From Sphingosinicella microcystinivorans (GTDB lineage: Bacteria; Pseudomonadota; Alphaproteobacteria; Sphingomonadales; Sphingomonadaceae), in contig NZ_CP116005.1 of assembly GCF_027941835.1 (NCBI RefSeq), positions 2,743,501 to 2,807,500 on the forward strand: a stretch of 64,000 nucleotides of DNA. The letters run 5' to 3'. The position numbers were made by a program, and so were the translations under genes. This document shows positions 6,855 through 56,541 of the stretch, piece after piece. The notes under the pieces are model-generated. The model made no database searches. It was not told the DNA's origin and saw only the letters and a list, made by a program, of their open reading frames with translations. Numbering within the stretch: the first letter of the stretch is position 1; every line of letters starts with the position of its first letter.

Positions 6855-6868
6855 TATACTACAGTGCA
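6855..6868 (+). promoter_or_regulatory. Island-wide 14-bp promoter element, copy 1
   Basis: TATACTACAGTGCA followed by AAAAAG, 81 bases before the first gene of the 6950-12331 operon. It matches the consensus TRYACCNNNGTGCA seen before most transcription units of this window. Confidence 0.6.
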
Positions 6869-6949
6869 AAAAGTGCTTGCGAACGGATCGCCGTTTCGGG
6901 CAACCGGAGATGAAGCTGCGGACGATAATCAAAGCGGGACGCGTTGGGG

Positions 6950-8134
6950 ATGGTCGAGACCGGATACGAGGGTGATGAGGCATTCCGGCAGGAAGTGCGC
7001 TCCTGGCTGCGGGACAATTTCCCGCAGTCGCTCGCATACTGCAACGCGCTCGTCTACCTGAACGACGCCCGGGTTGCCGCCGAGGATGAGGCGTTTCAGC
7101 TCTGGCGCCGGCGCGTCGCCGAAAAGGGCTGGGGCGTTCCGACATGGCCGAGGATTTACGGCGGCGCCGGGCTGACCGCGGCCGAGGCGCGCGTCATCAC
7201 GCAGGAAATGGCCCGCATCGGCGCCTTCAATCCGATGCGCAGCAACGGCACGATGATGCTGGGTCCGACGCTTCTCGAATATGGCACCGAGGAGCAGAAA
7301 CGACGTCACCTGCCGGGCATCGCCGATCACAGCGAGCGCTGGTGTCAGGGCTTTTCGGAGCCGGGTGCGGGCTCCGATCTCGCCTCGCTGCAAACCCGGT
7401 GCGTCGACATGGGCGATCACTTCCTCGTGAACGGCCAGAAGATCTGGACGTCCGGCGCCGATCACGCGGACTGGTGCTTCTGCCTCGTGCGCACCGACAC
7501 GTCGAGCAAGCATCGCGGTATCAGCTTCCTGCTCATCGACATGAAGACGCCCGGCGTCGAGGTGCGCCCGATCGTGCTGATCAGCGGCGCGACGCACTTC
7601 TGCGAGGTGTTCCTGAACGACGTGAAGGTGCCGAAGGAGAATCTGGTCGGCGCGCTCAACGAAGGCTGGTCGGTCGCCAAGCGGCTGCTCCAGTTCGAAC
7701 GCGACAGCCTGTCCGAAGGGCGCGGCGAGGCGCCCGGCCTGCTGCCGCTGGCGCAGGAGCATGTCGGCGTCGATGCGGAAGGGCGGATCGCCGATCCCGA
7801 TCTTCGCGTCCGCCTGATCGCGAACGCGATGCGCTCGGATGCCTACACGCGCACGGTCCAGCGGATCGCCGCCGAGGCGAAGGCGGGCAACAGCGTTCAG
7901 GACGGTGTTTCCGCGCTCAAGAATCTCGGCTCGGGCGTCGCGCAGGTCCGCGCCGAGCTGCTGGTCGAGATTCTGGGCCACGGCGGCCTCGGCTGGTCCG
8001 GGGACGCCTACGCGCCGGATGCCTTGGAAGCGACGCGGGCGTGGCTGCACAGCAAGGCCTTCTCGATCTACGGCGGCAGCTATGAAGTGCAGAACAACAT
8101 CACCGCCAAGCGGACGCTGGGCCTCCCCGGCTGA
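6950..8134 (+). CDS. Acyl-CoA dehydrogenase, probable subunit of a heteromeric enzyme
   Basis: A 394-residue FAD-dependent acyl-CoA dehydrogenase. Landmarks are WPRIYGGAGLT near the N-terminus, the flavin-binding CQGFSEPGAGSDLASLQT segment, KIWTSGADHADWC, and a C-terminal IYGGSYEVQNNI motif. At the usual catalytic YEGT position it has YGGS, as in FadE-type subunits where the base lies elsewhere. It is followed 35 bases later by a second, shorter acyl-CoA dehydrogenase. In mycobacterial cholesterol catabolism such adjacent pairs (ChsE1-ChsE2, ChsE4-ChsE5) form alpha2beta2 enzymes acting on bulky steroid CoA esters, so the same arrangement is inferred here. ATG at 6950 is preferred to the in-frame TTG at 6944; neither has a strong ribosome-binding site. 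Confidence 0.9.
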   Translation: MVETGYEGDEAFRQEVRSWLRDNFPQSLAYCNALVYLNDARVAAEDEAFQLWRRRVAEKGWGVPTWPRIYGGAGLTAAEARVITQEMARIGAFNPMRSNGTMMLGPTLLEYGTEEQKRRHLPGIADHSERWCQGFSEPGAGSDLASLQTRCVDMGDHFLVNGQKIWTSGADHADWCFCLVRTDTSSKHRGISFLLIDMKTPGVEVRPIVLISGATHFCEVFLNDVKVPKENLVGALNEGWSVAKRLLQFERDSLSEGRGEAPGLLPLAQEHVGVDAEGRIADPDLRVRLIANAMRSDAYTRTVQRIAAEAKAGNSVQDGVSALKNLGSGVAQVRAELLVEILGHGGLGWSGDAYAPDALEATRAWLHSKAFSIYGGSYEVQNNITAKRTLGLPG

Positions 8135-8169
8135 GCGATGATGACGGAAAGGATCGGGGGAGGAGCGTC

Positions 8170-9285
8170 ATGGCGGTTTTGAGCGAAGACCAGGTCATGC
8201 TGAAGGACATGGCGGCGGCATGGGTCCGCGACCGCCTGCCCGTCTCCGCGCGCCGCGCCGTCTTCGAAGGTGATTTCGATCGCGGATACGATCCCGCCGT
8301 CTATGCCGAAATGGCGGAGATGGGGTGGACGGGCATCGTCGTGCCCGAGGCGTGGGGCGGTCTCGATTTCGGCTATCTCAGTCTCGGCCTCGTGATCGAG
8401 GAACTGGGGCGGAATCTCGTCGCCTCGCCGTTCGTCAGCGCGGCGCTCGCCGCCGCGAGCGCGCTCCGCCTCGGCGGCACGGACGCGCAGCGCGATCGCT
8501 GGCTCCGGGGCATCGCGGACGGATCGGTGATCGGCACGCTCGCCGTCGACGAGGGCGTGCGCCATGCGCCCGCCGCGCTCGGCGTCACGGCGGAAGCCGT
8601 TCCGGGCGGTTGGCGCATCCGGGGCGTGAAGCGCCCGGTGCCGGACGGAATGGCCGCCGATTTCGCGATCGTCGCCGCGTCCGCTTCCGGAGGGACGATG
8701 CTGTTCATCGTCGATCTCGCGGCGGACGGCGTGACGCGCAGCGCGCTCGACCAGATCGACGCGCGCCGTCCGGCGATGATCGCGTTCGACATCGTCGTCG
8801 GCGAGGACGCGGTGCTGGGCACGGCGGGCGAGGGGGAGGCGTTGCTCGACGCCGTCCTCGACCGCGTGCGCGCCGGGGTCGCCGCCGAGATGCTCGGCAT
8901 GGCGACGCAGGCGTTCGAGACGACGCTCGAATACCTGAAGATGCGCGTGCAGTTCGGGCAGATCATCGGCTCGTTCCAGGCGCTCCAGCACCGGGCCGCC
9001 GAGATGTTCGCCGAATTGCAGCTCACGCGCTCCGCTGTCGAGGCCGCGCTCATCGCGATTGACGCGGACGATCCCGAGCTGCCGAAGCTCGCCTCGCTCG
9101 CGAAGGCGGTCGCAGGCGATACGCTGCACCGCATCTCGAACGAGATGGTGCAGATGCACGGCGGCATCGGCATGACGCACGAGCACGACGCGGGCCTGTA
9201 CCTGAAGTCGGCGCGGGTCGCCGACCAGTCCTACGGCAACGCCGCGTATCACCGGGAACGCTGGGGACGGCTGAACGGCTACTAG
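8170..9285 (+). CDS. Acyl-CoA dehydrogenase, probable partner subunit
   Basis: A 371-residue acyl-CoA dehydrogenase with the family fold: an N-terminal helical region (WTGIVVPEAWGGLDFGYL), a middle beta domain that is less conserved than in classical members, and the C-terminal VQFGQIIGSFQALQHRAAEM and MHGGIGMTHEHDAGLYLK motifs. The C-terminus ends in SYGNAAYHRERWGRL and lacks a YEGT-type catalytic Glu, as expected for one partner of a heteromeric dehydrogenase. A GGGGGAGG ribosome-binding site lies just before the ATG. It is the second gene of the operon and is best read together with the gene ending at 8134. Confidence 0.9.
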   Translation: MAVLSEDQVMLKDMAAAWVRDRLPVSARRAVFEGDFDRGYDPAVYAEMAEMGWTGIVVPEAWGGLDFGYLSLGLVIEELGRNLVASPFVSAALAAASALRLGGTDAQRDRWLRGIADGSVIGTLAVDEGVRHAPAALGVTAEAVPGGWRIRGVKRPVPDGMAADFAIVAASASGGTMLFIVDLAADGVTRSALDQIDARRPAMIAFDIVVGEDAVLGTAGEGEALLDAVLDRVRAGVAAEMLGMATQAFETTLEYLKMRVQFGQIIGSFQALQHRAAEMFAELQLTRSAVEAALIAIDADDPELPKLASLAKAVAGDTLHRISNEMVQMHGGIGMTHEHDAGLYLKSARVADQSYGNAAYHRERWGRLNGY

Positions 9286-11534: not shown

Positions 11535-12331
11535 GCATAGACGTCTGGAAGGGCTGGATCGGCAGGACCGAGAGCCGCACCGAGGTGCTTGACCCCGGCA
11601 GCCTCCGCCGCTTCGCCGCCGCCGTCGGCGAGGACCTTGACGTCGAGCGCACGCAGCCCTCGCTCGCGCACTGGGCGTTCTTCCTGCCGGTCGCCCCCGC
11701 GGACGGCCTCGGCGAGGACGGCCACCCGAAGCGCGGCGGGTTCCTGCCGCCGGTGACGCTGCCGCGCCGCATGTTCGCCGCTGCCGACATGCGCTTCGAC
11801 GGAACGCTCACGCTCGGCGCGCCCGCGACCCGCGTCTCGACCGTCACCGACGTCGCGCTGAAGTCCGGCAAGAGCGGCGACCTCGTGTTGGTGTCGGTCG
11901 AGCACCGCATCACGCAGGACGGTGCGGAGCGGGTCGCCGAGCGGCAGACCATCGTCTACCGCGACGCCGGGGCGCCGACGCCGCCCGTGGCCGCGTCCGA
12001 TCCGCCGCCGCAGGGCGACGTGGTCTGGGTGCCGAACACCGTCGACCTGTTCCGTTTCTCGGCCGCCACGTCGAACAGCCACCGCATCCACTACGACCTG
12101 CCCTATGCCACGGCGGAAGAAGGCTACCCCGGCCTCGTCGTGCACGGCCCGTTCACGGCGGCGCGACTCTTCGGCCATGCCCGCCGCAAGGGCGCGCTTT
12201 CGGCGTTTTCCTTCCGCGCGATGGCGCCGATGTTCTGCGGCCGGCCGATCGTGCTGCGGGACACGGCGGAGGGCGTCGAGGCGGTGCGCTGCGACGGCGC
12301 AGTGGCGATGCAGGCAAAATATAGCCTATAG
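11531..12331 (+). CDS. MaoC-like hydratase (HTD2 / mesaconyl-C4-CoA hydratase type)
   Basis: A 266-residue double hot-dog protein. The N-terminal half is a FAS1-type dehydratase-like hot dog (SLAHWAFFLP, GGFLPPVTLPRRMF). The C-terminal half carries the MaoC signature SNSHRIHYDLPYA followed by GYPGLVVHGPFTA. Family members hydrate enoyl-CoA thioesters or fumaryl-like esters. The start codon overlaps the preceding stop (ATGA at 11531-11534), indicating translational coupling with the CoA-transferase. The end of the gene overlaps the next promoter element at 12322-12335. Confidence 0.88.
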   Translation: MSIDVWKGWIGRTESRTEVLDPGSLRRFAAAVGEDLDVERTQPSLAHWAFFLPVAPADGLGEDGHPKRGGFLPPVTLPRRMFAAADMRFDGTLTLGAPATRVSTVTDVALKSGKSGDLVLVSVEHRITQDGAERVAERQTIVYRDAGAPTPPVAASDPPPQGDVVWVPNTVDLFRFSAATSNSHRIHYDLPYATAEEGYPGLVVHGPFTAARLFGHARRKGALSAFSFRAMAPMFCGRPIVLRDTAEGVEAVRCDGAVAMQAKYSL

Positions 12332-12335
12332 TGCA
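12322..12335 (+). promoter_or_regulatory. Island-wide 14-bp promoter element, copy 2
   Basis: TAGCCTATAGTGCA followed by ATATTC, 62 bases before the ATG at 12398. It overlaps the last codons of the preceding gene, so the 12.4-16.8 kb operon has its own control point despite the compact spacing. TATAGT within it could be the -10 box. Confidence 0.6.
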
Positions 12336-12397
12336 ATATTCGAATTGACTCGGCGCGCGAACAGGGCAAGGACGCCGGGTCTGGAGGAGAGATCGCA

Positions 12398-13582: not shown

Positions 13583-14779
13583 ATGCGCAGAGCCGCCATC
13601 GTCGCCCCCATCCGCACCGCCGTCGGCAAGTACGGCGGATCGCTGAAGTCCATGAGCGCCGGAGACCTCGGCGCGATCATCATAAGGGCGCTCGTAGAGC
13701 GCACGAAGATCGACCCGGAACGCATTGACGACGTTGTATTTTCGCAAGGGTACGGTAACGGCGAGGCGCCCTGCATCGGCCGCTGGTCGGCGCTGGCGGC
13801 GGGGCTGCCGGAATCGATCCCCGGCGTGCAGCTCGACCGGCGCTGCGGCTCCGGCCTGCAAGCCGTGATCGACGCGGCGATGCGGATCCAGACCGGCGCG
13901 GCGGACGTGGTGATCGCGGGCGGTGTCGAGAGCATGTCGAACGTCGAATATTATTCGATGGACCACCGCTGGGGCGCGCGCTCCGGCTCCACGACCTTCC
14001 ACGACCGGCTGACGCGCGGCCGCGTCATGTCGCAGCCGATCGCGCGCTACGGCATCATCACCGGCATGATCGAGACGGCGAACAACCTCGCCAAGGACTA
14101 CAACATTTCCCGCGAGGCGTGCGACGAGTACGCAGCCATGAGCCACCGGCGCGCCGCCGCGGCGTGGGCGGCGGGCAGGTTCGACGACGAGCTGGTGCCG
14201 GTGCCGGTGCCGCAGCGCAAGGGCGACCCGGTGATCTTCGCGATGGACGAGGGCATCCGCGCCGACGCGACGCCGGAATCGCTGGCGCAGCTCAAGCCCA
14301 TCGAGAAGGACGGCGTGGTGACGGCGGGCAACGCCAGCCAGCAGAACGACGCGGCGGCCGCCTGCCTCGTCGTCGCGGAGGACAAGCTCGCCGAACTGGG
14401 CCTCGAGCCGATGGGCTACCTGCACAGCTGGGCGGCGGCGGGCTGCGACCCGTCGCGCATGGGCATCGGCCCGGTTCCCGCCGTCGAGCGCCTGTTCGCC
14501 CGCACCGGCCTCGGCTGGAACGACATCGACCTCGTCGAGCTGAACGAGGCGTTCGCGCCGCAGGTGCTCGCCTGCCTCAAGGGCTGGGGCTGGGACGACC
14601 GCGACCGGCTCAACGTCAACGGTTCGGGCATCTCGCTCGGGCACCCGATCGGCGCCACCGGCGGCCGCATTCTCGCGAACCTGCTGCGCGAGCTGGCGCG
14701 GCGCGACGGGCGCTACGGCCTTGAAACCATGTGCATCGGCGGCGGGCAGGGGCTCGCCGCGATCTTCGAGCGGGCGTGA
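13583..14779 (+). CDS. Thiolase (acetyl-CoA acetyltransferase / 3-ketoacyl-CoA thiolase)
   Basis: A 398-residue thiolase with all three catalytic regions: nucleophilic Cys88 in LDRRCGSGLQA, the GISLGHPIGATGGR histidine motif, and the second Cys in ETMCIGGGQGLA. The N-terminus (AAIVAPIRTAVGKYGG) is canonical. It should cleave a 3-ketoacyl-CoA with CoA to release acetyl- or propionyl-CoA. The gene lies 30 bases after the acyl-CoA dehydrogenase and just ahead of a CoA-transferase. The precise chain-length preference is not evident. Confidence 0.94.
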   Translation: MRRAAIVAPIRTAVGKYGGSLKSMSAGDLGAIIIRALVERTKIDPERIDDVVFSQGYGNGEAPCIGRWSALAAGLPESIPGVQLDRRCGSGLQAVIDAAMRIQTGAADVVIAGGVESMSNVEYYSMDHRWGARSGSTTFHDRLTRGRVMSQPIARYGIITGMIETANNLAKDYNISREACDEYAAMSHRRAAAAWAAGRFDDELVPVPVPQRKGDPVIFAMDEGIRADATPESLAQLKPIEKDGVVTAGNASQQNDAAAACLVVAEDKLAELGLEPMGYLHSWAAAGCDPSRMGIGPVPAVERLFARTGLGWNDIDLVELNEAFAPQVLACLKGWGWDDRDRLNVNGSGISLGHPIGATGGRILANLLRELARRDGRYGLETMCIGGGQGLAAIFERA

Positions 14780-16847: not shown

Positions 16848-16869
16848 CCCCTTGTGATCGGATCAATTT

Positions 16870-16883
16870 TGTACCATAGTGCA
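16870..16883 (+). promoter_or_regulatory. Island-wide 14-bp promoter element, copy 3
   Basis: TGTACCATAGTGCA followed by GAAATC, 32 bases before the ATG at 16916. It is an imperfect dyad (TGnAC-N4-GTnCA). A possible -35 TTGTGA lies 17 bases upstream of CATAGT, so the element would cover the -10 region. Confidence 0.65.
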
Positions 16884-16915
16884 GAAATCAATTCGACAAA
16901 GGGGAGCGCCCGGCC

Positions 16916-21390: not shown

Positions 21391-22563
<1,173 letters not shown>

Positions 22564-22583
22564 GATCCGGTCTCTTCCAAAAT

Positions 22584-22597
22584 TTCACTTGCGAGCA
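22584..22597 (-). promoter_or_regulatory. Island-wide promoter element, degenerate copy 4 (thiolase)
   Basis: On the minus strand this reads TGCTCGCAAGTGAA followed by ATTTTGG, ending 20 bases before the thiolase ATG. The GTGAA variant deviates from GTGCA, but flank and position fit the series. Confidence 0.4.
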
Positions 22598-22616
22598 AAA
22601 TTCCATTGCGCACGCG

Positions 22617-22630
22617 TCTCGTCAAGTGCA
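22617..22630 (+). promoter_or_regulatory. Island-wide promoter element, copy 5 (LLM oxidoreductase)
   Basis: TCTCGTCAAGTGCA followed by TTATCC, 49 bases before ATG 22680. It overlaps a 27-bp sequence repeated exactly at 34882-34908, where it stands 48 bases before another start codon. Confidence 0.55.
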
Positions 22631-22646
22631 TTATCCAAATGAATTA
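22620..22646. repeat. 27-bp exact repeat, copy A
   Basis: Identical to 34882-34908, base for base. It begins CGTCAAGTGCATTATCC and ends with AAATGAATTA. Both copies lie in intergenic regions between divergent genes and cover the right half of a promoter element. This suggests a duplicated regulatory region rather than chance. Confidence 0.85.
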
Positions 22647-27236: not shown

Positions 27237-28730
27237 TCAGGCGGTGCGGAAGCGGATGGTTTTGGCGTAGCTGTATTCGTGCAGGCCCTCGATGCCGTAC
27301 TCGCGCCCGAAGCCGGACCGCTTGATGCCGCCGAAGGGAGCGTGCACGCTGAAATTGCCCGGGCCGCCGTTGATGCTGACGCCGCCCGTCCGCACGGCGC
27401 GCGCGATCTCGAACGCGCGGCCCATGTTTCTCGACCACACGGTGCCGGCGAGGCCGAAATCCGAATCATTGGCGATGGCCACGGCCTCTTCGTCGCTGTC
27501 GACCCCGATGACGACGGCGATGGGGCCGAAGATTTCCTCACGCACCACGGCGCTCTCGTTGGAGAGGCCGTCGAACAGCGTCGGTTCATAGAAGAAGCCG
27601 TGGTCGAACCCTGCCGGCCGCCGGCCGCCGAAAACGAGGCGCCCTCCATCAGCGTGGGCCTTCGCGACATAGGATTCCACCTTGTCGCGCTGGCTCGCGC
27701 GGATCAGCGGACCCATCGTGACGCCGGGAGCGAGGCCATACCCGATCTTCACGCCGCGCACCATTTCGGTGAGGCGTTCGAGATAGTCGGCCTTGATGCT
27801 GTTGTGGACGATGTGGCGCGTGGTGAGGCCGCAGGCCTGCCCGGCGTGCATGGTCATGCTGCGGAGGCCTGCTGCGACGGCGAGGTCGAGATCGGCGTCC
27901 GGGCAGACGATCATTGCAGACTTGCCGCCGAGTTCGAGAACGAGCCGCTTCAGCGTCGGCGCTGCCTGCGCCTGGATCAGCGAACCCACGGCGTCGGACC
28001 CGGTGAAGCTCACCATGTCGACGCGCGGGTCCGAGGTGAGCAGAGAGCCGACATCGACACCGCCGGTAACGACATTGAAGACGCCCTGAGGAAGGCGTGC
28101 GGCTTCTGCTGCCTCTGCGAGGAGCAGCGATTCGAACGGCGTGAACGGGGAGGGCTTCAGGACCACGCTGTTGCCCATCACGAGCGCCTGCATGGATTTG
28201 ACGACGCCCATCAGCAGCGGGAAATTATAGGGCGTGATGACGGAAACGACGCCGATCGGTTCGCGTACCACGACGCCCGCGCCGACATTGGCGGTGCCGT
28301 CCGGCAGCGGCACGGTTTCGAGCGGCAGGTTACGGTCGAGATCGGTGCGGGCGAGCGACAGGATCGCACGTCCGACCGCGACGGACGTGTCATAGCCGAC
28401 CGCGCGCGCAATGCCCTGCGCCACACCGGTTTCGGTGACGATCAGCCGGACGATCGCATCGCCGCGTTCGGCGAGCCATGCGACGAACGGCTCCAGGCGC
28501 GCGGCGCGCTCGGCGGTTGAAAGACGCGGCCACGGTCCGTGATCGAAGGCATGGCGCGCTGCGGCGATCGCGGCGTCCACCTCGCGCACGCCGCCGACCG
28601 GCGCCCGCCCGAAAACCGACTCCGTTGCGGGATCAGGGATTTCGTCGAATGCGCCCGTGGACGGCGCCAGCCATTCGCCACCCACATACAGGCGATGATA
28701 GCTGCTGAACGGAATCTCGGCTGAAGCCAC
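27237..28730 (-). CDS. NAD(P)-dependent aldehyde dehydrogenase
   Basis: A 497-residue ALDH-superfamily enzyme. The catalytic Cys300 lies in HAGQACGLTTRH, the general base Glu in LVLELGGKSAMIV, and the cofactor-binding PYNFPLLMGVVKSMQALVMG segment is intact. It converts an aldehyde to an acid, probably downstream of the PQQ dehydrogenase in the same operon. It is the first gene of a minus-strand operon (aldehyde dehydrogenase, PQQ enzyme, LLM enzyme, SnoaL-like protein). A matching promoter element lies 51 bases upstream at 28782-28795. Confidence 0.93.
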   Translation of the reverse strand: MASAEIPFSSYHRLYVGGEWLAPSTGAFDEIPDPATESVFGRAPVGGVREVDAAIAAARHAFDHGPWPRLSTAERAARLEPFVAWLAERGDAIVRLIVTETGVAQGIARAVGYDTSVAVGRAILSLARTDLDRNLPLETVPLPDGTANVGAGVVVREPIGVVSVITPYNFPLLMGVVKSMQALVMGNSVVLKPSPFTPFESLLLAEAAEAARLPQGVFNVVTGGVDVGSLLTSDPRVDMVSFTGSDAVGSLIQAQAAPTLKRLVLELGGKSAMIVCPDADLDLAVAAGLRSMTMHAGQACGLTTRHIVHNSIKADYLERLTEMVRGVKIGYGLAPGVTMGPLIRASQRDKVESYVAKAHADGGRLVFGGRRPAGFDHGFFYEPTLFDGLSNESAVVREEIFGPIAVVIGVDSDEEAVAIANDSDFGLAGTVWSRNMGRAFEIARAVRTGGVSINGGPGNFSVHAPFGGIKRSGFGREYGIEGLHEYSYAKTIRFRTA

Positions 28731-28781
28731 CGGCGTTCACCTCCCACGACCACAAACACGGCGATCTTCCGTCACCATTTT

Positions 28782-28795
28782 TGCATGGTGGTGCA
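28782..28795 (-). promoter_or_regulatory. Island-wide 14-bp promoter element, copy 6
   Basis: On the minus strand this reads TGCACCACCATGCA followed by AAAATG, 51 bases before the aldehyde dehydrogenase ATG. Both ends read TGCA, making it one of the most symmetrical copies. Confidence 0.62.
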
Positions 28796-28809
28796 TATTC
28801 TTGAGAGGG

Positions 28810-29394
28810 TCAAGCGAAAGCGCGAAAATCCTCTTCGGTGTCGACGTCGCGTTGAAGGCCGGGGCGGCGCACGAAGGCGACCCAGAGGTGGGCTTCCTCG
28901 GCCGCTTGCCGGTGCGCGGAGGCGCTGTTTTCCCCGTAGAGATAAGGGATTGCCGCAGGCGGCGAGACGAGGAGGGCGTTGGTGCCGAGGTCTGCGTGAT
29001 CGGGTGCGATCACGCAGACAGACGCGCCCTTTGCCGCATCGAGCATGGCCAGAACGTCGTCCGTTTCGAGCAGCGGCAAATCCGTGCTGAGCGACAACAC
29101 TGCCGCTGCACCGCGTTCCCGCGCGTAAGCCGCAGCCTGCGCAAGCGCGGCGTTCAGCGTGTGGCCGTACTCCTCCAGGAATATCGCGCCCGCCGCCTTT
29201 GCCAGATCGCGGACCTCTGCCGCACGGCTGACGACGAGGATGCGCGCTGGGGGGACGACAGCGGTGGCGATGCCCAGAACATGGGCAAACATCCGTCGAT
29301 TGAAGGCTTCGCGCTCCGCCGGGGGCAGCACGTCTGCGAGGCGGCTCTTGCCTTCGCCGAACGGGCGCACGGGGATGATGATCCACACCGACAT
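28810..29394 (-). CDS. cofC: 2-phospho-L-lactate (or PEP / 3-phosphoglycerate) guanylyltransferase for F420
   Basis: A 194-residue nucleotidyltransferase. VWIIIPVRPFGEGKSRLADV is the CofC/FbiD N-terminal signature, and LSLSTDLPLLETDDVLAM and PDHADLGTNALLVSPP hold the metal- and phosphate-binding Asp residues. It activates a three-carbon phospho-acid with GTP to give the GDP-linked precursor used by CofD. Which acid is used (2-phospholactate, PEP or 3-phosphoglycerate) cannot be decided from sequence by eye. It is the last gene of the F420 operon, 4 bases after cofD. Confidence 0.9.
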   Translation of the reverse strand: MSVWIIIPVRPFGEGKSRLADVLPPAEREAFNRRMFAHVLGIATAVVPPARILVVSRAAEVRDLAKAAGAIFLEEYGHTLNAALAQAAAYARERGAAAVLSLSTDLPLLETDDVLAMLDAAKGASVCVIAPDHADLGTNALLVSPPAAIPYLYGENSASAHRQAAEEAHLWVAFVRRPGLQRDVDTEEDFRAFA

Positions 29395-29398
29395 GTCG

Positions 29399-30328
29399 CT
29401 ATCGTGCGCTGAGGGTACGGGCGAAATCCAGCGTGATCTGTGCGAGGCGCTTGCGGTCTGCGGCGTCGCGCATCAGCGTGTCGTCGGCATGGATCGCGGG
29501 GCCGTTGCAGGGCAGGGCGGCGTCGGCGCGGTCGATGACGAGGCCGTCCAAAAAGTTGACATAGTAGTCGGCGAGGGCGGATGGCGTGGCTTCGAAGCCG
29601 CGCTCGTTCATGATCTTTGCAGCTGGCCCCTTCACCGCCTTGCCGCCGATGAAGGGCGATACGGCGACCACGGGCACGCGCCGGGCCTCCAGCGCCCGGC
29701 GGATGCCGGGGATGGCGAGGATCGGCCCGATGCTGAGGATCGGGTTCGACGGACAGATAATTATCGCCTGAAGTGCAGGATTGGAAAACGCGTCCGCGAG
29801 CGCCGGGGACGGGGCCGCCGCATCGGCGCCGCCGTAGCGGATCGACAGGAAGCGGGGTTCGCAGCGGCGGCGGACGAAATAGTCCTGAAACGCGAGCTCG
29901 CCCTCGTCCGTTTCGACGACGGAGCGGACGGGATCGTCGCTGACCGGCACGATGCGGTGACGGATGCCGAGCCGCTGCGCGAAGCGCGCGGTGATTTCGG
30001 ACAGCGTGTGCGTTTTCAGGAGCTGCGTGCGGAGCACGTGCAGCGCCATGTCGCGGTCGCCGAGGTTGAACCAGTCCTCGCCGCCGAGGGTCCGGAGCAT
30101 CGCCATGAAGTTCCACGTCTCGCCCTCGATGCCCCAGCCCTGCGCGCGGTTGGCGAGGCCCGCAAGCGTGTAGGTGACGGTGTCGAGGTCCGGGCAGACG
30201 GTGAGGCCGAGATGCTCGAAATCGTCGCCGACGTTGACGGCGATCAGAAGCTCTTCGGGCGGAAGCACGGCGGCGAGACCGGCGGCGAGCTTCGCGCCGC
30301 CGACGCCGCCCGCGAGCGCGACGATCAT
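29399..30328 (-). CDS. cofD: 2-phospho-L-lactate transferase (F420-0 synthase)
   Basis: A 309-residue CofD/FbiA family enzyme: IVALAGGVGGAKLAAGLAAV at the N-terminus, AVNVGDDFEHLGLTVCPDLD, NRAQGWGIEGETWNFMAML, and ICPSNPILSIGPILAIPGIR, all hallmark segments. It joins the phospho-acid moiety to the deazaflavin Fo to make F420-0 or dehydro-F420-0. The start overlaps the cofE stop by the ATGA arrangement (30325-30328), so cofE and cofD are translationally coupled. Length equals that of archaeal and actinobacterial homologues. Longer in-frame starts would run inside cofE. Confidence 0.95.
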   Translation of the reverse strand: MIVALAGGVGGAKLAAGLAAVLPPEELLIAVNVGDDFEHLGLTVCPDLDTVTYTLAGLANRAQGWGIEGETWNFMAMLRTLGGEDWFNLGDRDMALHVLRTQLLKTHTLSEITARFAQRLGIRHRIVPVSDDPVRSVVETDEGELAFQDYFVRRRCEPRFLSIRYGGADAAAPSPALADAFSNPALQAIIICPSNPILSIGPILAIPGIRRALEARRVPVVAVSPFIGGKAVKGPAAKIMNERGFEATPSALADYYVNFLDGLVIDRADAALPCNGPAIHADDTLMRDAADRKRLAQITLDFARTLSAR

Positions 30329-31080
30329 GGAAACAGGTCCAGCGCGCGCGGGCGCACCAGCTCCGCCGCATTGCCCTCGCGCCGCGCGTAGGAAACGCCG
30401 CGCACGATCGCGAGCGGGCGGCCCTCGCCCGCCTGACCCATCGCAAGCGAGGCGGCGGCGGCGATCTCGTCGGCAAGGCCGAGTTCGCTGGTTTCGAGGC
30501 GGCGGCCATAGATGTCGGGCGTGCCGCGCAGGTCGAGCAGCGCGGGGAGGCCCGCCGCGCCGATGGCGGTGCCGGTCGTGCCGTTCCGCCACGCGCGGCC
30601 GAGGCTGTCGATGATGAGCACGGCGACGTCGGCGCCGCTCGCGGCGCGGAGCGCATCGCGCAGCACCGCCGCGCTCGCGTCGGGGTCGCGCGGCAGCAGA
30701 AGCGCGGCGGGACGGCTATGGTCGATGTTCGACTGGTCGATCCCGGCGTTCGCCAGCACGATGCCGAGGCGGTGACGGACGATGAGCACGCCTTTCCGCA
30801 CGCGCATCACCGTGTCGGTTTCCGAAAGTACGAGTTCGACGAGGCGCGGGTCCTTGTCGCACTGCGCGGCAAGCTCCACGGCGCGCGGGGAGGGCGTGAC
30901 CGTGTCGAGGGGGACGAGACGGCCTTCGGCCTTCGAGACGATCTTCTGCGCGAGCACGACGATGTCGCCGTCTTCCGGCGTATGCGCCGCAAGGACGAGC
31001 GTCGCGAGGTCGTCGCCCGCGGCGACCTGCGGCACGCCATCCGGTGCGAACACCGTTATCGTTGCGCCGGAGCCTGTCAT
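30325..31080 (-). CDS. cofE: Coenzyme F420-0:L-glutamate ligase
   Basis: A 251-residue ligase adding the glutamate tail to F420-0 with GTP. LAAHTPEDGDIVVLAQKIVSK and VRHRLGIVLANAGIDQSNID, plus VLIIDSLGRAWRNGTTGTAIG, are the CofE signatures. It is the short, archaeal-like form: the C-terminal FMN reductase domain found in actinobacterial FbiB is absent. That domain reduces dehydro-F420-0, so either the cell uses a different acid donor or a separate reductase. The gene starts 13 bases after npdG ends. Confidence 0.93.
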   Translation of the reverse strand: MTGSGATITVFAPDGVPQVAAGDDLATLVLAAHTPEDGDIVVLAQKIVSKAEGRLVPLDTVTPSPRAVELAAQCDKDPRLVELVLSETDTVMRVRKGVLIVRHRLGIVLANAGIDQSNIDHSRPAALLLPRDPDASAAVLRDALRAASGADVAVLIIDSLGRAWRNGTTGTAIGAAGLPALLDLRGTPDIYGRRLETSELGLADEIAAAASLAMGQAGEGRPLAIVRGVSYARREGNAAELVRPRALDLFP

Positions 31081-31093
31081 GAAATGCCGTTCG

Positions 31094-31759
31094 TCAGATG
31101 CCTGTGATGCGGATACCCGATCCCGGCACCTTGTACTTGCGGTTGAGCGCGATCAACACCGAAGTCAGCCCTTCGGCCACCACGGAATTCGCGAGCGGCC
31201 CCGCGTTCCACGCCTTGAGGCCGATCGCCTCGGCGAGCGCGACCACGGTGTCCGCCGTTTCGGGATCGTCGGCGCAGACGAGGACATCGCATTCGATTTC
31301 CTCGTCGAGCTTGGTCAGGTGGTGTGCGGAGATGTTCTGGAACGCCGAGACGACCTTCACGCCTTCGCCGAGCAGCTTCTGCACGGCTTCCACCGCCGAG
31401 CCGCCCTCGGGAAGCTGCACGCGGCTCACCTTCGGCGGCACCAGCGGCACGGTGACGTCGATGAGGATCTTGCCTTCAAGCTGCGTGCGAACCTCCTGCA
31501 CGGTCGATTGCTGGGCGGCGTAGGGCACGGCGAGCACGACGATGTCGGCCTTCGCGGCGGCGTCAGCATTGGCGGCCCCGGTCACGGCCGCGCCGCCCAG
31601 CGTTTCGTTCATCGCGGCGGCGGCTTCGGCGGCGCGTTCCGCCGTGCGGCTGCCGACGATGACGGGATAGCCGCGATGCGCCCAGCGCAGCGCGAGGCCG
31701 CCGCCTTCCTTGCCCGTGCCGCCGAGGACCGCGATGGTCGGCTTCGCTTCACCCTGCAT
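31094..31759 (-). CDS. npdG: F420H2:NADP+ oxidoreductase
   Basis: A 221-residue Rossmann protein. IAVLGGTGKEGGGLALRWAH gives the NADP loop with a following SRTAERA, and the central VVLAVPYAAQQSTV, VSAFQNISAHHLTKLD and DVLVCADDPETADTVVALAE segments are typical of Fno/NpdG. It exchanges hydride between NADP(H) and F420, tying the LLM-class enzymes of this island to the NADPH pool. It overlaps the fbiC 3' end by 11 bases, consistent with an operon. Strong evidence that F420 is used here and not only Fo. Confidence 0.92.
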   Translation of the reverse strand: MQGEAKPTIAVLGGTGKEGGGLALRWAHRGYPVIVGSRTAERAAEAAAAMNETLGGAAVTGAANADAAAKADIVVLAVPYAAQQSTVQEVRTQLEGKILIDVTVPLVPPKVSRVQLPEGGSAVEAVQKLLGEGVKVVSAFQNISAHHLTKLDEEIECDVLVCADDPETADTVVALAEAIGLKAWNAGPLANSVVAEGLTSVLIALNRKYKVPGSGIRITGI

Positions 31760-34136
31760 ACTCGAACTCCTTGCCCAAGGTCTTGTCGCCGTCCTTGCGC
31801 GGCGGCGTGAGAATGATCGGCGCGAGGTCCGCGGCCTCGCGGCCCTTGCGGCGCGCGGCTTCGCTCACGTCGCCGTACAGCGTCGTGCGCTGACGCGGCG
31901 CGCGCCCGATCGAACGGATCAGCGCGTCCATCGCGGCGGGCGGCATCTCCTGCCCGTGCTGCGTGCCCGCCGCGCGCGAAATGCTCTCGTTCATCAGCGT
32001 GCCGCCGAGGTCGTTCGCGCCCGATGCGAGGCAGGCGGCGACGCCCGCCGGGCCGAGCTTGACCCAGCTCGTCTGGATGTTCGCAATCAGCGGATTGAGC
32101 GCGAGGCGGGCGACGGCGTGCATCAGCCGCACCTCGCGGAAGGTCGGCCCGCGCCGCGTCTCTCCGCGCACGCCCATCGGCGCTTCCATGTGCACGAACG
32201 GCAGCGGCACGAATTCGGTGAAGCCGCCGGTTTCGGCCTGGAGATCGCGGATAAGCAGCAGGTGGCGCGCCCAGTGCGCGTAGGTTTCGACATGGCCGAA
32301 CATGATCGTCGCGGTGGTGCGGAAGCCGACCTTGTGGGCGGTGCCGACGACGTGCAGCCATTCCGCCGTGTTCAGCTTGTCCGGGCAGATGATGCGGCGC
32401 ACCTCGTCGTCGAGGATTTCGGCGGCGGTGCCGGGGAGCGTGCCTAGGCCCGCGTCCTTCAGGCGGCAGAGGAAATCCTCGACCGACAGGCCGAGCGTTT
32501 CCGCGCCGTGGGACACTTCGAGCGGCGAGAAGGCGTGGAGGTGAATGTCCGGCACGGCGGTGCGGACGGTGCGCGCGAGCGTGAGATAGGTCTCGCCCGT
32601 GTAGCTCGGATGGATGCCGCCTTGCAGGCAGACCTCCGTGCCGCCGCGCGCCCACGCTTCTTCCGTGCGCCGCGCTACCTCGGCGAGATCGAGGTCGTAG
32701 GGCCGGCCGCGCAGCGCGTCCGACGTCTTGCCCTTGGAGAAGGCGCAGAAGCCGCACTTGTAGGCGCAGATGTTGGTGTAGTTGATGTTGCGGTTGACGA
32801 CATAGGTGACAGTGTCGCCGTTCACCGCGCGCCGGAGCGCGTCCGCGCTTTCGCAGATGTGTTCGAGATCGACGTCGCGCGCCTCGAACAGCGCGGCGAG
32901 GGCGGCTTCGTCCGGACGCTCTCCGGCAAGCGCGCGGTTCACCGTCGCTGCGATGCCGCGATCGAGCGCGGCGAGGTACGGCGCTTCGGGCGGACGGTCG
33001 GGGAGGGCGAGACCGGGAGACCAGCCGTCGGCGCGCGCGAAGCCGGAGGTGTCGGCGGCGGCGCGCACGTGGCGCTGCATCGCCGCATCCTGCCAGCGCG
33101 CGTTTTCGGCGACGTAGGCGGGATAGACCGGGAGGCGGGGGACGAGGATGCGGTTCGCGCCAGCGGTGGCTGCGCGCAGTTGCTGCACGGCGGGCCACGG
33201 CGCTTCGGGGTTCACGTGATCGGGGGTGACGGGCGACACGCCGCCCCAGTCGTTGATGCCCGCGTCGATGAGGCGCGGGAAATCGTCCGCCGAGAGGTTC
33301 GGCGGCACCTGGATGTTCATGGCCGGGCCGAGCAGGATGCGCGCGGCGGCGGCGGTCCAGAGCAGGTCGTCCATGTCCGGCTCCGGCGCGTCCGCCATCA
33401 CGGTGCGCGGCTTCGCCCGGAAGTTCTGGACGATGACCTCCTGGATATGGCCGTGGCGGGCATGGAGATCACGGATCGCGGCGAGCGCATCCAGCCGTTC
33501 GGCGCGCGTTTCGCCGATGCCGATGAGGATGCCGGTGGTGAAGGGGATCGCAAGCTCGCCCGCGATGCGGATGGTCTCGAGGCGGACCTCGGGATGCTTG
33601 TCCGGCGAGCGGTAATGCGCGCCGCCCTTTTCGCAGAGGCGGTCCGAAACCGATTCGAGCATCAGCCCCTGCGAGGCGGAGACGGGGCGCAGCATCGCCA
33701 TCTCCTCGCGGGTCATCACGCCCGCGTTGATGTGCGGCAGCAGACCCGTCTCGTCGCGGACGGCGGCGGCGACCTCGGCGAGGTAGGAGAGGGTGGTCTC
33801 GTGCCCGAGCGCGGCGAGTTCGTCGCGCGCCGCCTTGAAGCGCAGTTCCGGCTTGTCGCCGAGCGTGAACAGCGCCTCGGTGCATCCGGCCGCCTTTCCG
33901 GCGCGCGCGATGTCCAGCACCTGTTCGCGGGTGAGGTAGCACGCCTCGCCCCGGCGCGGCGGCTGGGAGAAGGTGCAGTAGTGGCAGAGGTTGCGGCAAA
34001 GCTGCGTCAGCGGAATGAAGACCTTCGGCGACCAGCTCTGGATGCGGCCGTGGCCCGCCTCGCGCAGCGCCGAGGCGCGCGCCAGCATCTCGGGAAGCGG
34101 CATCGCCAGCAGCGATTCGGGCCTGATCTCCGCCAT
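31749..34136 (-). CDS. fbiC: Bifunctional 7,8-didemethyl-8-hydroxy-5-deazariboflavin (Fo) synthase
   Basis: A 795-residue fusion of two radical-SAM enzymes. The N-terminal CofG half has the 4Fe-4S motif C47-R-N-L-C51-H-Y-C54. The C-terminal CofH half has C457-A-Y-K-C461-G-F-C464. Both are CxxxCxxC. CofH adds tyrosine-derived hydroxybenzyl to the flavin precursor and CofG closes the deazaflavin ring, giving Fo. The fused order equals the actinobacterial FbiC, whereas archaea have separate proteins. ATG 34136 lies directly after the tetR-type stop (34138-34140). Slightly longer in-frame starts exist inside that gene but are less likely. Confidence 0.95.
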   Translation of the reverse strand: MAEIRPESLLAMPLPEMLARASALREAGHGRIQSWSPKVFIPLTQLCRNLCHYCTFSQPPRRGEACYLTREQVLDIARAGKAAGCTEALFTLGDKPELRFKAARDELAALGHETTLSYLAEVAAAVRDETGLLPHINAGVMTREEMAMLRPVSASQGLMLESVSDRLCEKGGAHYRSPDKHPEVRLETIRIAGELAIPFTTGILIGIGETRAERLDALAAIRDLHARHGHIQEVIVQNFRAKPRTVMADAPEPDMDDLLWTAAAARILLGPAMNIQVPPNLSADDFPRLIDAGINDWGGVSPVTPDHVNPEAPWPAVQQLRAATAGANRILVPRLPVYPAYVAENARWQDAAMQRHVRAAADTSGFARADGWSPGLALPDRPPEAPYLAALDRGIAATVNRALAGERPDEAALAALFEARDVDLEHICESADALRRAVNGDTVTYVVNRNINYTNICAYKCGFCAFSKGKTSDALRGRPYDLDLAEVARRTEEAWARGGTEVCLQGGIHPSYTGETYLTLARTVRTAVPDIHLHAFSPLEVSHGAETLGLSVEDFLCRLKDAGLGTLPGTAAEILDDEVRRIICPDKLNTAEWLHVVGTAHKVGFRTTATIMFGHVETYAHWARHLLLIRDLQAETGGFTEFVPLPFVHMEAPMGVRGETRRGPTFREVRLMHAVARLALNPLIANIQTSWVKLGPAGVAACLASGANDLGGTLMNESISRAAGTQHGQEMPPAAMDALIRSIGRAPRQRTTLYGDVSEAARRKGREAADLAPIILTPPRKDGDKTLGKEFEYAG

Positions 34137-34878: not shown

Positions 34879-34892
34879 TTCCGTCAAGTGCA
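34879..34892 (+). promoter_or_regulatory. Island-wide promoter element, copy 7
   Basis: TTCCGTCAAGTGCA followed by TTATCC, 48 bases before GTG 34941. This matches the geometry of copy 5 (49 bases before ATG 22680), and both overlap the same 27-bp repeat. Confidence 0.55.
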
Positions 34893-34908
34893 TTATCCAA
34901 ATGAATTA
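34882..34908. repeat. 27-bp exact repeat, copy B
   Basis: Exact match to 22620-22646. It lies between the divergent TetR/F420 operon and the kinase operon and covers part of promoter element copy 7. Confidence 0.85.
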
Positions 34909-40938: not shown

Positions 40939-41029
40939 GGCCTTCCGCGTGCCCGGTGTGTCGCGAATGTCGCGCCGGGCATGATTTGAAACCTGCACAG
41001 CGGATTAATAATTGACATGGCCATAAAAC

Positions 41030-41043
41030 TGCATTTAAGTGCA
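41030..41043 (+). promoter_or_regulatory. Island-wide 14-bp promoter element, copy 9
   Basis: TGCATTTAAGTGCA followed by GAAATT. TGCA-N6-TGCA ends make it symmetrical. TTGACA at 41012-41017, 17 bases before TTAAGT, gives a near-consensus promoter overlapped by the element, 233 bases before the TonB receptor start. Confidence 0.68.
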
Positions 41044-41046
41044 GAA

Positions 41047-41075
41047 ATTGCAAGGAATCGTGTATTCCTTGCAAT
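41047..41075. promoter_or_regulatory. 29-base perfect dyad just downstream of the receptor promoter
   Basis: Arms ATTGCAAGGAAT (41047-41058) and ATTCCTTGCAAT (41064-41075) pair perfectly over 12 bp with a CGTGT centre. It begins 4 bases after promoter element copy 9, so it lies at or just after the transcription start. It could be a second operator or an mRNA 5' hairpin affecting stability. Confidence 0.7.
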
Positions 41076-50086: not shown

Positions 50087-50125
50087 CGCGTCTCTTTTGC
50101 ACTGGATCGGCGCGCCGGAAAAATA

Positions 50126-50139
50126 TATACCTCGGTGCA
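50126..50139 (+). promoter_or_regulatory. Island-wide 14-bp promoter element, copy 10
   Basis: TATACCTCGGTGCA followed by GAATTT, 21 bases before ATG 50161. It starts the operon of the Ltp2-like protein, DUF35 protein and double CoA-transferase. Confidence 0.62.
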
Positions 50140-50160
50140 GAATTTGGGTGAGGGTCCGAT

Positions 50161-54191: not shown

Positions 54192-54914
54192 GTGCGTTTG
54201 CTGAACGAAGTCACCGAGAGACCGCAGACCTATTCGAGCCCGGCCATTCGCGCGCGGCGAAGCCGTATTCTTGACGAAACCCGCAAGATGATCTCCGAGC
54301 AGGGCGTTTCGGCGCTCAGCATGAACGAGATCGGCAAGCGGGCCGGCGTTGCGAAGCGGACGCTCTACAACGCCTTCCAGACGCGCGAGCGGATGATCGC
54401 GGCCGCCATCCAGGAATATTTCGACGAGTATCTGGCGCGCATCCCCTACAACAGCGACCCCGGCACGCTGATGCACAACCTGGAGCGCATCGTCGCGGTG
54501 GTGCAGCGCAACCGCAAGATCCGTAACTACATCCGCGCCATCATGGGGCTGTATTTCAGCCCGGACACCGATCCCGACATCTGGACGGCGATGCAGTCCA
54601 TGGGAACGCGGCCGAACCTCGGCTGGATCCGCAACCTGCAGACGCGCAAGCATCTCCAGCCGTGGGTGGACGTGGAGAAGCTGGCTGACGACATCGTCCG
54701 TTACGAATATGCGACGATCAACGACTGGGCGCGCGGCCGCATTGGCGACGACGAGATCGTGCCGCGACTGGTGCGCAGCTATCTGACCTTCATGAGCGGC
54801 GCGACACGCGGCGCGGCGCGCAAGGAGATCGAGGAACTGCTGGGGCGCATCGACGTGGAAGGGTTGTCGGCGATCCCGGTTTTCGCGACGCCGCGCAAGG
54901 CGTCGGCCGCTTAA
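54192..54914 (+). CDS. TetR/AcrR-family transcriptional regulator
   Basis: A 240-residue regulator. The HTH is in residues about 25-70 (ILDETRKMISEQGVSALSMN, IGKRAGVAKRTLYNAFQTRE), with a Lys-Arg-rich recognition helix. The C-terminal ligand domain is large (RNYIRAIMGLYFSPDTDPDI). It is a monocistronic plus-strand gene inside the island with no promoter element of the shared type before it; a TTGACG at 54112 may be a -35 box. It is one of three TetR genes in the window and one of two candidates for the island-wide regulator. GTG 54192 follows GAGGGA (54184-54189). Confidence 0.87.
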   Translation: MRLLNEVTERPQTYSSPAIRARRSRILDETRKMISEQGVSALSMNEIGKRAGVAKRTLYNAFQTRERMIAAAIQEYFDEYLARIPYNSDPGTLMHNLERIVAVVQRNRKIRNYIRAIMGLYFSPDTDPDIWTAMQSMGTRPNLGWIRNLQTRKHLQPWVDVEKLADDIVRYEYATINDWARGRIGDDEIVPRLVRSYLTFMSGATRGAARKEIEELLGRIDVEGLSAIPVFATPRKASAA

Positions 54915-54917
54915 TTC

Positions 54918-54931
54918 TATCCCGCGATGCA
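54918..54931 (+). promoter_or_regulatory. Island-wide 14-bp promoter element, copy 11
   Basis: TATCCCGCGATGCA followed by AAATTT, 64 bases before ATG 54996 and immediately after the TetR stop. Confidence 0.52.
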
Positions 54932-54995
54932 AAATTTCTTGCACTTTCCCTGAGACGAGGGCTTTGTGCGGGAAAGGCTTGGGGAAGGATTGATC

Positions 54996-55808: not shown

Positions 55809-55818
55809 AAGGGCGATC

Positions 55819-56463
55819 ATGCAGTTCGACATGCGCAACCTGCCGATGCCGGTGAACTACAAGATCGTGAATTCCACGATCACGCCGCGCCCGATCGCGT
55901 GGACGACGACGCTGTCCGCCGACGGTGTGCTCAACGTCGCGCCCTACAGCTTCTTCAATTGCGTGGGCGTCGAACCGCCGCTGGTGGCGCTGGGGCTGCT
56001 GAAGGACGAGGCCTGCGCCCTCAAGGACACGGCGACGAACATCATCGCGACGGGCGAGTTCGTCGTGAACCTCGTGTCGGAAGACGACGCGGCGCGGATG
56101 AACGAGACCAGCGTGTCCGCACCGCCCGAGGTGAACGAAGCCATTTACGCGGGTGTCGAAACGCTGCCCTCGGTGTTCGTGAAGCCGCCGCGCATCGCGA
56201 CCAGCCCCGTGAGCTTCGAATGCCGCAAGGTTGCCGCACTCGACATCGGCGTGCGGCAGACCATCGTGATCGGCGAGATCCTGATGGCGCATATCGGGGA
56301 TGAATTCATCACGGACCCGGAGAAGCTCTACCTCGATACGCCTGCCATGAAGTTGATCGGCAGGACGCACGGTGCGGGCTGGTATGTGCGGAACTCGGAC
56401 CAGTTCCAGATGAACCGCACCCCCTACGATTCCGAAAAGGCGAAGACGCTGGGCGCGATCTGA
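55819..56463 (+). CDS. Flavin reductase family protein (FMN-binding split barrel)
   Basis: A 214-residue flavoredoxin-like protein: ITPRPIAWTTTLSADGVLNV, APYSFFNCVGVEPPLVALGL, and GEFVVNLVSEDDAARMNETS match the flavin_reduct domain. Such proteins bind FMN and either supply reduced flavin to monooxygenases or reduce substrates directly. No two-component monooxygenase is seen nearby. The split-barrel fold is also used by some F420-binding proteins, so the cofactor is worth testing in this F420-producing context. It forms a two-gene operon with the crotonase upstream. Confidence 0.88.
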   Translation: MQFDMRNLPMPVNYKIVNSTITPRPIAWTTTLSADGVLNVAPYSFFNCVGVEPPLVALGLLKDEACALKDTATNIIATGEFVVNLVSEDDAARMNETSVSAPPEVNEAIYAGVETLPSVFVKPPRIATSPVSFECRKVAALDIGVRQTIVIGEILMAHIGDEFITDPEKLYLDTPAMKLIGRTHGAGWYVRNSDQFQMNRTPYDSEKAKTLGAI

Positions 56464-56527
56464 CGCCCGGCCGGCTTGTCACCGCCGAAGATAGACATTG
56501 CATGTCCGGCGGCTCTCCGGCATAAAT

Positions 56528-56541
56528 TGACCTGCGGTGCA
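56528..56541 (+). promoter_or_regulatory. Island-wide 14-bp promoter element, copy 12
   Basis: TGACCTGCGGTGCA followed by ATAATG, 77 bases before ATG 56619. It begins the last operon of the island (transporter, crotonase, aldehyde dehydrogenase). Confidence 0.55.

What the first reader, a model, noticed from the sequence alone, without database searches (positions are those of the whole stretch)
6855..56541. A shared 14-bp promoter element marks one large regulon across 50 kb
Twelve intergenic sites, at 6855, 12322, 16870, 22584(-), 22617, 28782(-), 34879, 34926(-), 41030, 50126, 54918 and 56528, read approximately TRYACCNNNGTGCA followed by an A/T-rich run such as AAATT. The best copies are TGTACCATAGTGCA, TATACCTCGGTGCA and TGCACCACCATGCA. 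Orientation follows the downstream gene and most lie 20-80 bases before a start codon. No copy was seen before the S9 peptidase, P450/flavoprotein, 60.2-kb transporter, Crp/Fnr or narK genes. The element could be a TetR-type operator overlapping the -10 box, and it draws the outline of a single catabolic island. I know of no description of this motif.
Basis: seen in the sequence. Interest (0 to 1): 0.88.

Follow-up and report, generated by a model that had tools for sequence, protein, structure and literature searches.

The report
Conserved operator of a sterol-type catabolic regulon
A 24-base palindrome repeated in front of many operons of a roughly 55-kb sterol-like degradation gene island in a sphingomonad-type bacterium is very probably the DNA switch read by a TetR-family regulator encoded inside the island, because the same switch is found beside that regulator in many other bacteria.

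Summary
The motif is real, but it is a 24-bp palindrome, AATTnTGCAC-N4-GTGCAnAATT. Nine of the 12 listed sites belong to it; 22617 and 34879 are two copies of a different 27-bp repeat, and 34926 is a poor half-site. A matrix trained only on two other genomes' islands finds 10 hits in the 64-kb window against 2 in 400 kb elsewhere in this genome. A genome-wide pattern puts 7 of 8 best matches in the window; the eighth precedes a 3-ketosteroid-dehydrogenase-like gene. The motif tracks the TetR at 54192, not the one at 34138: 21 of 22 loci with 54192 orthologues carry it, 20 of 22 just 3' of the TetR gene. With no matrix at all, TGCAY-N4-RTGCA occurs 36 times in those loci and never in 840 kb of control loci. 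Most likely it is the operator of a KstR-like repressor of a sterol side-chain-type regulon. Across genomes, sites sit in two registers relative to a -35-like TTG, so dual control is possible. A new member of a known kind; nothing was tested at the bench.

The parts
   Evidence: held-out score 24.3; copies at or before the orthologous P450 gene in G088 (6645, overlapping the called start) and G015 (80858)
6850..6873 (+). operator before the acyl-CoA dehydrogenase genes at 6950
   Evidence: held-out score 28.1; G088 equivalent at 8234
12317..12340 (+). operator before acyl-CoA dehydrogenase 12398, overlapping the 3' end of gene 11531
   Evidence: held-out score 27.2; G088 equivalent at 13586
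16865..16888 (+). operator before enoyl-CoA hydratase 16916; best copy in the window
   Evidence: held-out score 33.8; G088 equivalent at 18553
22579..22602 (-). operator between thiolase 21391 (minus) and the LLM oxidoreductase (plus)
   Evidence: held-out score 23.7; G088 has a copy at 22382 before the orthologous thiolase
28777..28800 (-). operator before aldehyde dehydrogenase 27237-28730 (minus)
   Evidence: held-out score 22.6; TTG at -13, class B register
40989..41012 (+). weaker second copy upstream of the TonB-dependent receptor
   Evidence: held-out score 18.7
41025..41048 (+). operator before the TonB-dependent receptor (start 41094 or 41217)
   Evidence: held-out score 31.2; TTGACA at -13, class B register
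50121..50144 (+). operator before the lipid-transfer-type thiolase 50161 and its ChsH2-like partner
   Evidence: held-out score 28.8
54913..54936 (+). operator directly 3' of the TetR gene, before an enoyl-CoA hydratase; the most widely conserved copy
   Evidence: held-out score 25.6; a copy 3' of the TetR gene in 20 of 22 orthologue loci; TTG at +26, class A register
56523..56546 (+). operator before MFS transporter 56619
   Evidence: held-out score 23.6
54192..54914 (+). TetR-family regulator, the proposed cognate regulator
   Evidence: TetR_N E 5.4e-13; orthologues stand beside the motif; V53-A61 of the HTH region invariant in 24 of 24 aligned sequences
22620..22646 (+). NOT this motif: copy 1 of the exact 27-bp repeat, proposed operator of TetR 34138
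   Evidence: motif score -8.5 at the listed place
34882..34908 (+). NOT this motif: copy 2 of the exact 27-bp repeat, at the TetR 34138/phosphotransferase promoter
   Evidence: related element at the same place in G015, G007 and G005; motif score -4.7 at the listed place
   Evidence: orthologues in G007 and G005 without the 24-bp motif around them

Best explanation
The element is the operator of the TetR-family protein encoded at 54192. Shown by sequence: a 24-bp palindrome (AATTnTGCAC-N4-GTGCAnAATT) lies before ten gene starts of the island, is found before orthologous genes in other genomes although gene order has changed, and co-occurs with 54192 orthologues. Inferred: a homodimer binds each copy through its helix-turn-helix and represses transcription until a CoA thioester or other intermediate of the pathway (sterol or isoprenoid side-chain-like) binds its C-terminal domain, as KstR does for cholesterol. 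Where the operator is centred on the -10 box (class B) it should block RNA polymerase directly; where it ends 2 bp upstream of the -35 (class A) it may repress or activate.
For: Unsupervised discovery. Cross-genome held-out enrichment, 10 hits in 64 kb against 2 in 400 kb. 7 of the 8 best whole-genome matches in the window. 21 of 22 orthologue loci have a hit of 18 or more and 20 of 22 have one within 200 bp 3' of the TetR match; 61 hits of 22 or more in 391 kb against 8 in 840 kb of controls. Spacing test without a matrix: N4 36 times in those loci, each other spacing 0-12 at most 3 times, N4 0 times in controls and once in 400 kb of the own genome. 34138 orthologues in G007 and G005 have no copy of 18 or more in the 60 kb around them, and G088 has no 34138 hit but has the motif. 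HTH segment invariant. Nearest solved relatives include Mce3R and KstR, and KstR is the first fold match. Targets look sterol-like: acyl-CoA dehydrogenase next to Tcur3483 and 4x28, lipid-transfer-type thiolase, KstD-like gene at the distant site.
Against: No binding or expression data. No strong site lies directly 5' of the TetR gene in the window, so classic autoregulation is not seen there. Novosphingobium sp. Chol11 (L089) keeps a 62% orthologue with no site above 14.4 in 20 kb; its neighbourhood has lost the island apart from one gene. L088 has no 3' site. The 22 loci are not independent (several close Sphingobium and Novosphingobium). In G015 only 6 of 11 best pattern matches lie in the island, 5 elsewhere. 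The whole-genome pattern has control matches too: 19 against 8 at 2 mismatches in this genome; and AT-rich genomes of the order match often, mostly as their controls do. Similarity to KstR and Mce3R is mostly in the DNA-binding domain; Foldseek TM for the 50 best is about 0.36-0.61.
Confidence: 0.78

Rival explanations
1. The operator belongs to the TetR at 34138, which binds it and autoregulates.
For: A poor half-site (34921) and, in G015, a weak copy (63046, score 20.0) lie at the promoter of this TetR. In G027, whose 34138 orthologue is 58% identical, 5 hits of 18 or more lie in 60 kb; in G007 a second, 45% relative has one hit (22.6) 8 kb away inside a called gene.
Against: G007 and G005 (60 and 50% orthologues) have no hit of 18 or more in 60 kb. 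The G027 hits lie in AT-rich DNA (51% G+C) at least 12 kb from the TetR gene. G088 has no 34138 hit at E 1e-20 but has the motif. A different element is conserved at the 34138 promoter in G015, G007 and G005.
Confidence: 0.06
2. It is a general core promoter of this genome, not an operator.
For: TATAC-like left halves and TTG boxes at fixed distances.
Against: 9 hits in 2,414 intergenic bases of the window against 2 in 36,715 elsewhere; the palindrome with fixed N4 spacing; co-occurrence with one TetR.
Confidence: 0.02
3. It is the site of a known alphaproteobacterial regulator with a TGCA-rich palindrome, such as PhaR/AniA or NtrC.
For: PhaR/AniA sites of Sinorhizobium also have TGCA halves and AT-rich arms (PMC12542648, passages read).
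Against: PhaR halves are YGCR-N-YGCR; TGCA-N-TGCA occurs 0 times in the three islands and once in the 22 orthologue loci, against 36 copies with N4. The NtrC spacing is recalled as longer than N4; no longer spacing is enriched in those loci.
Confidence: 0.03
4. A different regulator, encoded outside the island, reads the motif; 54192 merely travels with the island as one of its genes.
For: No direct biochemical link exists, and Chol11 keeps the TetR without the motif nearby.
Against: That regulator would have to be present in hosts as distant as Luteimonas, Terricaulis and Emcibacter; the site 3' of the TetR gene and the HTH segment are both conserved.
Confidence: 0.11

Closest known systems
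KstR regulon of mycobacteria (TetR repressor of cholesterol catabolism; PMC1995591, passages read)
   Same: One TetR-type protein and one palindrome before many sterol catabolic genes; at its own promoter the KstR palindrome overlaps the -10; KstR is the first fold match.
   Different: KstR palindrome is TnnAACnnGTTnnA (14 bp); here TGCAC-N4-GTGCA within 24 bp. Sequence similarity covers mostly the DNA-binding half. No autoregulatory site seen in the window.
KstR2 regulon (PMC3068626, passages read)
   Same: TetR repressor of cholesterol catabolic genes with clustered sites.
   Different: Motif AnCAAGnnCTTGnT; only three promoter regions.
EdcR of Caenibius tardaugens (PMC8700777, passages read)
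   Same: TetR repressor of a steroid pathway in a sphingomonad; a long palindrome overlapping the -10 box.
   Different: Palindrome TnnCnnTACnAnTnGTAnnGnnA: 23 positions, odd symmetry, another core; oestradiol cluster; relation to 54192 not tested.
PhaR/AniA of Sinorhizobium meliloti (PMC12542648, passages read)
   Same: TGCA half-sites with AT-rich arms.
   Different: Half-sites one base apart; a different protein family (recalled).
Mce3R of Mycobacterium tuberculosis (PMC11667970, passages read)
   Same: Best sequence match of 54192 among solved structures (E 5.7e-10); a sterol-linked repressor.
   Different: Double TetR protein, non-palindromic 25-bp sites.

Membership tests
TetR-family regulator (54192) | N-terminal TetR_N helix-turn-helix domain above the Pfam cut-off | tested here: met
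   PF00440, 48.9 bits against cut-off 24
TetR-family regulator (54192) | all-helical fold of the family | tested here: met
   model pLDDT 87.6; the 50 matches shown are TetR-type regulators by title, with low TM
TetR operator | palindromic site in promoters of the regulated genes | tested here: met
   palindrome and position only; regulation itself untested
TetR operator | binding by the cognate protein | not testable with these tools
   only co-occurrence
KstR orthologue | passes the curated NCBIfam KstR cut-off (280 bits) | tested here: not met
   37.8 bits
KstR regulon | motif TnnAACnnGTTnnA | tested here: not met
   the motif found is TGCAC-N4-GTGCA
PhaR/AniA site | YGCR-N-YGCR half-site spacing | tested here: not met
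   TGCA-N-TGCA 0 times in the three islands
EdcR operator | TnnCnnTACnAnTnGTAnnGnnA | tested here: not met
   compared by eye only with the sites: even symmetry and a TGCAC-N4-GTGCA core

The most novel reading that the evidence does not exclude
One TetR-family protein uses one operator in two promoter registers to give opposite outputs: it represses promoters whose -10 box sits at the operator's centre (class B) and activates weak promoters whose -35 lies 2 bp downstream of the operator (class A). It thereby couples substrate uptake and oxidation, ring attack and, in at least one genome, F420 supply in a mobile sterol-type pathway.
Probability: 0.22. Interest if true: 0.65.

Novelty: new member of a known kind. 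Interest (0 to 1): 0.5.

Why it matters
It turns a roughly 55-kb island without a known regulator into a defined, testable regulon with a candidate regulator and operator, found in at least four orders of Pseudomonadota (Sphingomonads plus Caulobacterales, Emcibacterales and Lysobacterales). It gives a marker for finding further members (the KstD-like gene about 390 kb away is the first) and an operator/regulator pair that could serve a sterol-type biosensor. In one genome (L067) it places F420 biosynthesis genes under the same operator.

Tried and rejected
TetR 34138 as the cognate: rejected. PhaR- and NtrC-like spacing: rejected. Degenerate pattern over 148 relatives: among the 89 genomes of the own family, the three with close 54192 orthologues rank first by excess over control (+10, +6, +6; next +4; on numbers typed), but the pattern was built on those three, so this is partly circular; many AT-rich genomes of other families match as often as their control, and some (for example G111, 14 against 3) more often, which I did not follow. 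Better half-site facing the gene: 50 against 23 on all 73 oriented sites (p 0.002, not independent) but 29 against 18 (p 0.14) on 47 non-redundant ones, so not claimed. In some searches minus-strand segments were misaligned by 10 bases; one search corrects this and only it is used. Literature: searches showed no description of this operator or regulon among the papers listed (lists were cut, for example 12 of 204); papers other than those cited were seen as listings only, except passages of PMC13273656 (PheR, an IclR regulator) and PMC12882949 (bile salts in C. tardaugens, other proposed palindromes).
Full report
What was checked. The window is bases 2743501-2807500 of a 4.53-Mb genome held as one contig. 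I called genes with a hexamer model of my own and ran an unsupervised motif search on the 19 of 29 intergenic regions of 36 bases or more. Refined on 30 sites of three genomes (11 window, 11 G015, 8 G088) it is a palindrome, AATTnTGCAC-N4-GTGCAnAATT.

Which listed sites are real. Against a matrix built only from the islands of two other genomes, 9 of the 12 listed sites score 22.6 to 33.8; 22617 (-8.5), 34879 (-4.7) and 34926 (5.2) do not fit. 22617 and 34879 lie in two copies of an exact 27-bp repeat, 23 bases of which were searched with up to 3 mismatches and found only twice in the genome. A related element is conserved at the promoter between TetR 34138 and the phosphotransferase gene in G015, G007 and G005, so it is probably that TetR's own operator.

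More than chance. With the cross-genome matrix at score 20 or more there are 10 hits in the window and 2 in 400 kb of 20 other stretches of the same genome, half of which flank the window. In intergenic DNA the figures are 9 in 2,414 bases and 2 in 36,715. A whole-genome search with AWWWNTRYMCNNNNGKRYANWWWT gave 8 places with at most 1 mismatch (reversed control pattern 2), 7 of them in the window (binomial p 9e-13; the pattern was derived partly from these sites), and 19 with at most 2 (control 8), of which the listing shows 16, 9 of them in the window. The eighth good place, 3189544, lies before a flavoprotein whose best solved relative is a 3-oxosteroid 1-dehydrogenase (E 5e-91). In G088, 11 of 12 matches fall on one contig between 1621726 and 1669143; in G015 only 6 of the 11 best do (10 of 30 at 2 mismatches), so confinement differs by genome.

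Which regulator. Among the proteins scanned the window encodes three TetR proteins: 6217, 34138 and 54192. G088 has no 34138 hit at E 1e-20 but has the motif; G007 and G005 have 34138 orthologues (60 and 50%) and no copy of 18 or more in 60 kb. G027 (58% orthologue) has 5 such hits in 60 kb, in a 51% G+C region and at least 12 kb from the gene; a second, 45% relative in G007 has one hit 8 kb away inside a called gene. One scan of named genomes with the 54192 family brought 80 loci. Of 22 loci with at least 57% identity, not counting near kin of the window, G015, G088 and one fragment, 21 have a hit of 18 or more and 20 have one within 200 bp 3' of the TetR match, with a matrix trained on the window alone; hits of 22 or more number 61 in 391 kb against 8 in 840 kb of 44 control loci. 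They include Sphingobium, Novosphingobium, Sphingomonas, Sandaracinobacteroides and Luteimonas; more distant ones (Emcibacter, Terricaulis) carry it too. Several of the 22 are close relatives of each other. The exceptions are L088 (a copy 5' instead) and L089, Novosphingobium sp. Chol11 (none). Around the Chol11 gene only one island gene remains, so there may be nothing left there to regulate; this is an inference. Its whole genome has 17 pattern matches at 2 mismatches against 9 for the control. Without any matrix, TGCAY-N4-RTGCA occurs 36 times in the 22 loci, each other spacing from 0 to 12 at most 3 times, N4 never in the control loci and once in the 400 kb of the own genome. The segment V53-A54-K55-R56-T57-L58-Y59-N60-A61, most of it the second HTH helix of the model (55-62), is invariant in 24 of 24 sequences, as a conserved operator would demand.

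What it controls. By Pfam, NCBIfam and PDB comparison the genes behind the sites encode an acyl-CoA dehydrogenase whose closest solved relatives are Tcur3483 and 4x28 (that these are sterol side-chain enzymes, 4x28 being FadE26-FadE27, is recalled), a lipid-transfer-type thiolase with a ChsH2-like partner, CoA transferases, hydratases, aldehyde dehydrogenases, PQQ dehydrogenases, a TonB receptor, MFS transporters and a P450 nearest the CYP101 group. Operons are inferred from layout. Together with the KstD-like outlier this suggests a sterol or isoprenoid side-chain pathway; the substrate is inferred, not shown. F420 biosynthesis genes (28810-34136) lie inside the island; in L067 they follow a 34138-like gene that stands directly after 54192 and a strong site.

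How it probably works. 54192's best solved relatives by sequence are Mce3R and, among others, KstR and KstR2; its model (pLDDT 87.6) matches KstR, NalD, AvaR1 and FadR first, with TM of about 0.36-0.61. I therefore propose a repressor released by a CoA thioester or other intermediate. Two promoter registers stand out: a TTG starting 26 bases after the operator's first base in 36 of 73 oriented sites (15 of 47 non-redundant; about 0.6 expected per position), and a TTG at -13 in 12 of 73 (9 of 47). In the second class, 19 of 99 sites when divergent promoters are included, an assumed 17-nt spacer puts the -10 hexamer on the operator's centre, which should block transcription. In the first class the operator abuts a weak -35; this is compatible with repression or with activation. 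In the window itself, of ten oriented sites one (54913) is exactly in the first register, three have a TTG 1 or 2 bases off it, and three (16865, 28777, 41025) are in the second, so the two classes rest mainly on the other genomes.

Limits. Everything rests on sequence. Matrix scores depend on training sites, which is why held-out and matrix-free tests were run. The non-redundant set was cut at 62% identity over 64 bases, so some relatedness remains.

Known or new. KstR (TnnAACnnGTTnnA, PMC1995591), KstR2 (AnCAAGnnCTTGnT, PMC3068626), EdcR (TnnCnnTACnAnTnGTAnnGnnA, PMC8700777), PhaR/AniA (YGCR-N-YGCR, PMC12542648) and Mce3R (non-palindromic, PMC11667970) have other motifs (passages read). Eight searches of the held library listed no paper that I could recognise as describing this operator or regulator; the lists were cut. 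It is a new member of a known kind, a TetR regulon, with a well supported operator.

Noticed in passing
22620-22646 and 34882-34908: Two copies of an exact 27-bp repeat (23 bases of it searched: only these two in the genome); related elements at the TetR 34138/phosphotransferase promoter of G015, G007 and G005. Probably the operator of TetR 34138, which would also control the LLM oxidoreductase gene.
   Followed up: partly
about 4055-4080 and 6150-6195: A third palindrome family, TTGTACAACA / ACAACATGTGTTGT, lies next to site 4081 and before the TetR gene 6217; similar stretches stand beside the 24-bp site in L082 and L086. Possibly the operator of TetR 6217.
   Followed up: no
28810-34136 (minus): A set of F420 biosynthesis genes (CofC, CofD, CofE, a CofG/CofH-like radical SAM protein) with an F420-dependent NADP oxidoreductase-like gene inside a proteobacterial catabolic island.
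   Followed up: partly
L086 (Luteimonas saliphila contig): A contig named as a gammaproteobacterium carries island genes, the TetR (61%) and the operator: probable horizontal transfer, unless the contig is contamination.
   Followed up: partly
L075 10001-10681: The 54192 orthologue of Sphingobium faniae has an in-frame stop in the matched stretch although operator copies stand around it.
   Followed up: no
G001-G004: None of the four congeneric genomes searched has a hit for either TetR at E 1e-20, so the island looks accessory in this genus.
   Followed up: no
G015:C12:813821-813875: Two motif-like sites 31 bp apart, away from the island in G015; neighbouring genes were not read.
   Followed up: no
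G015:C7:151680-151703 (L064:9833): A pattern match without mismatch lies about 150 bp 5' of the match to a 37-39% identical paralogue of 54192, suggesting that the paralogue reads a similar operator.
   Followed up: partly
window 7278: A motif-like hit (15 or more) inside the coding sequence of the acyl-CoA dehydrogenase at 6950.
   Followed up: no
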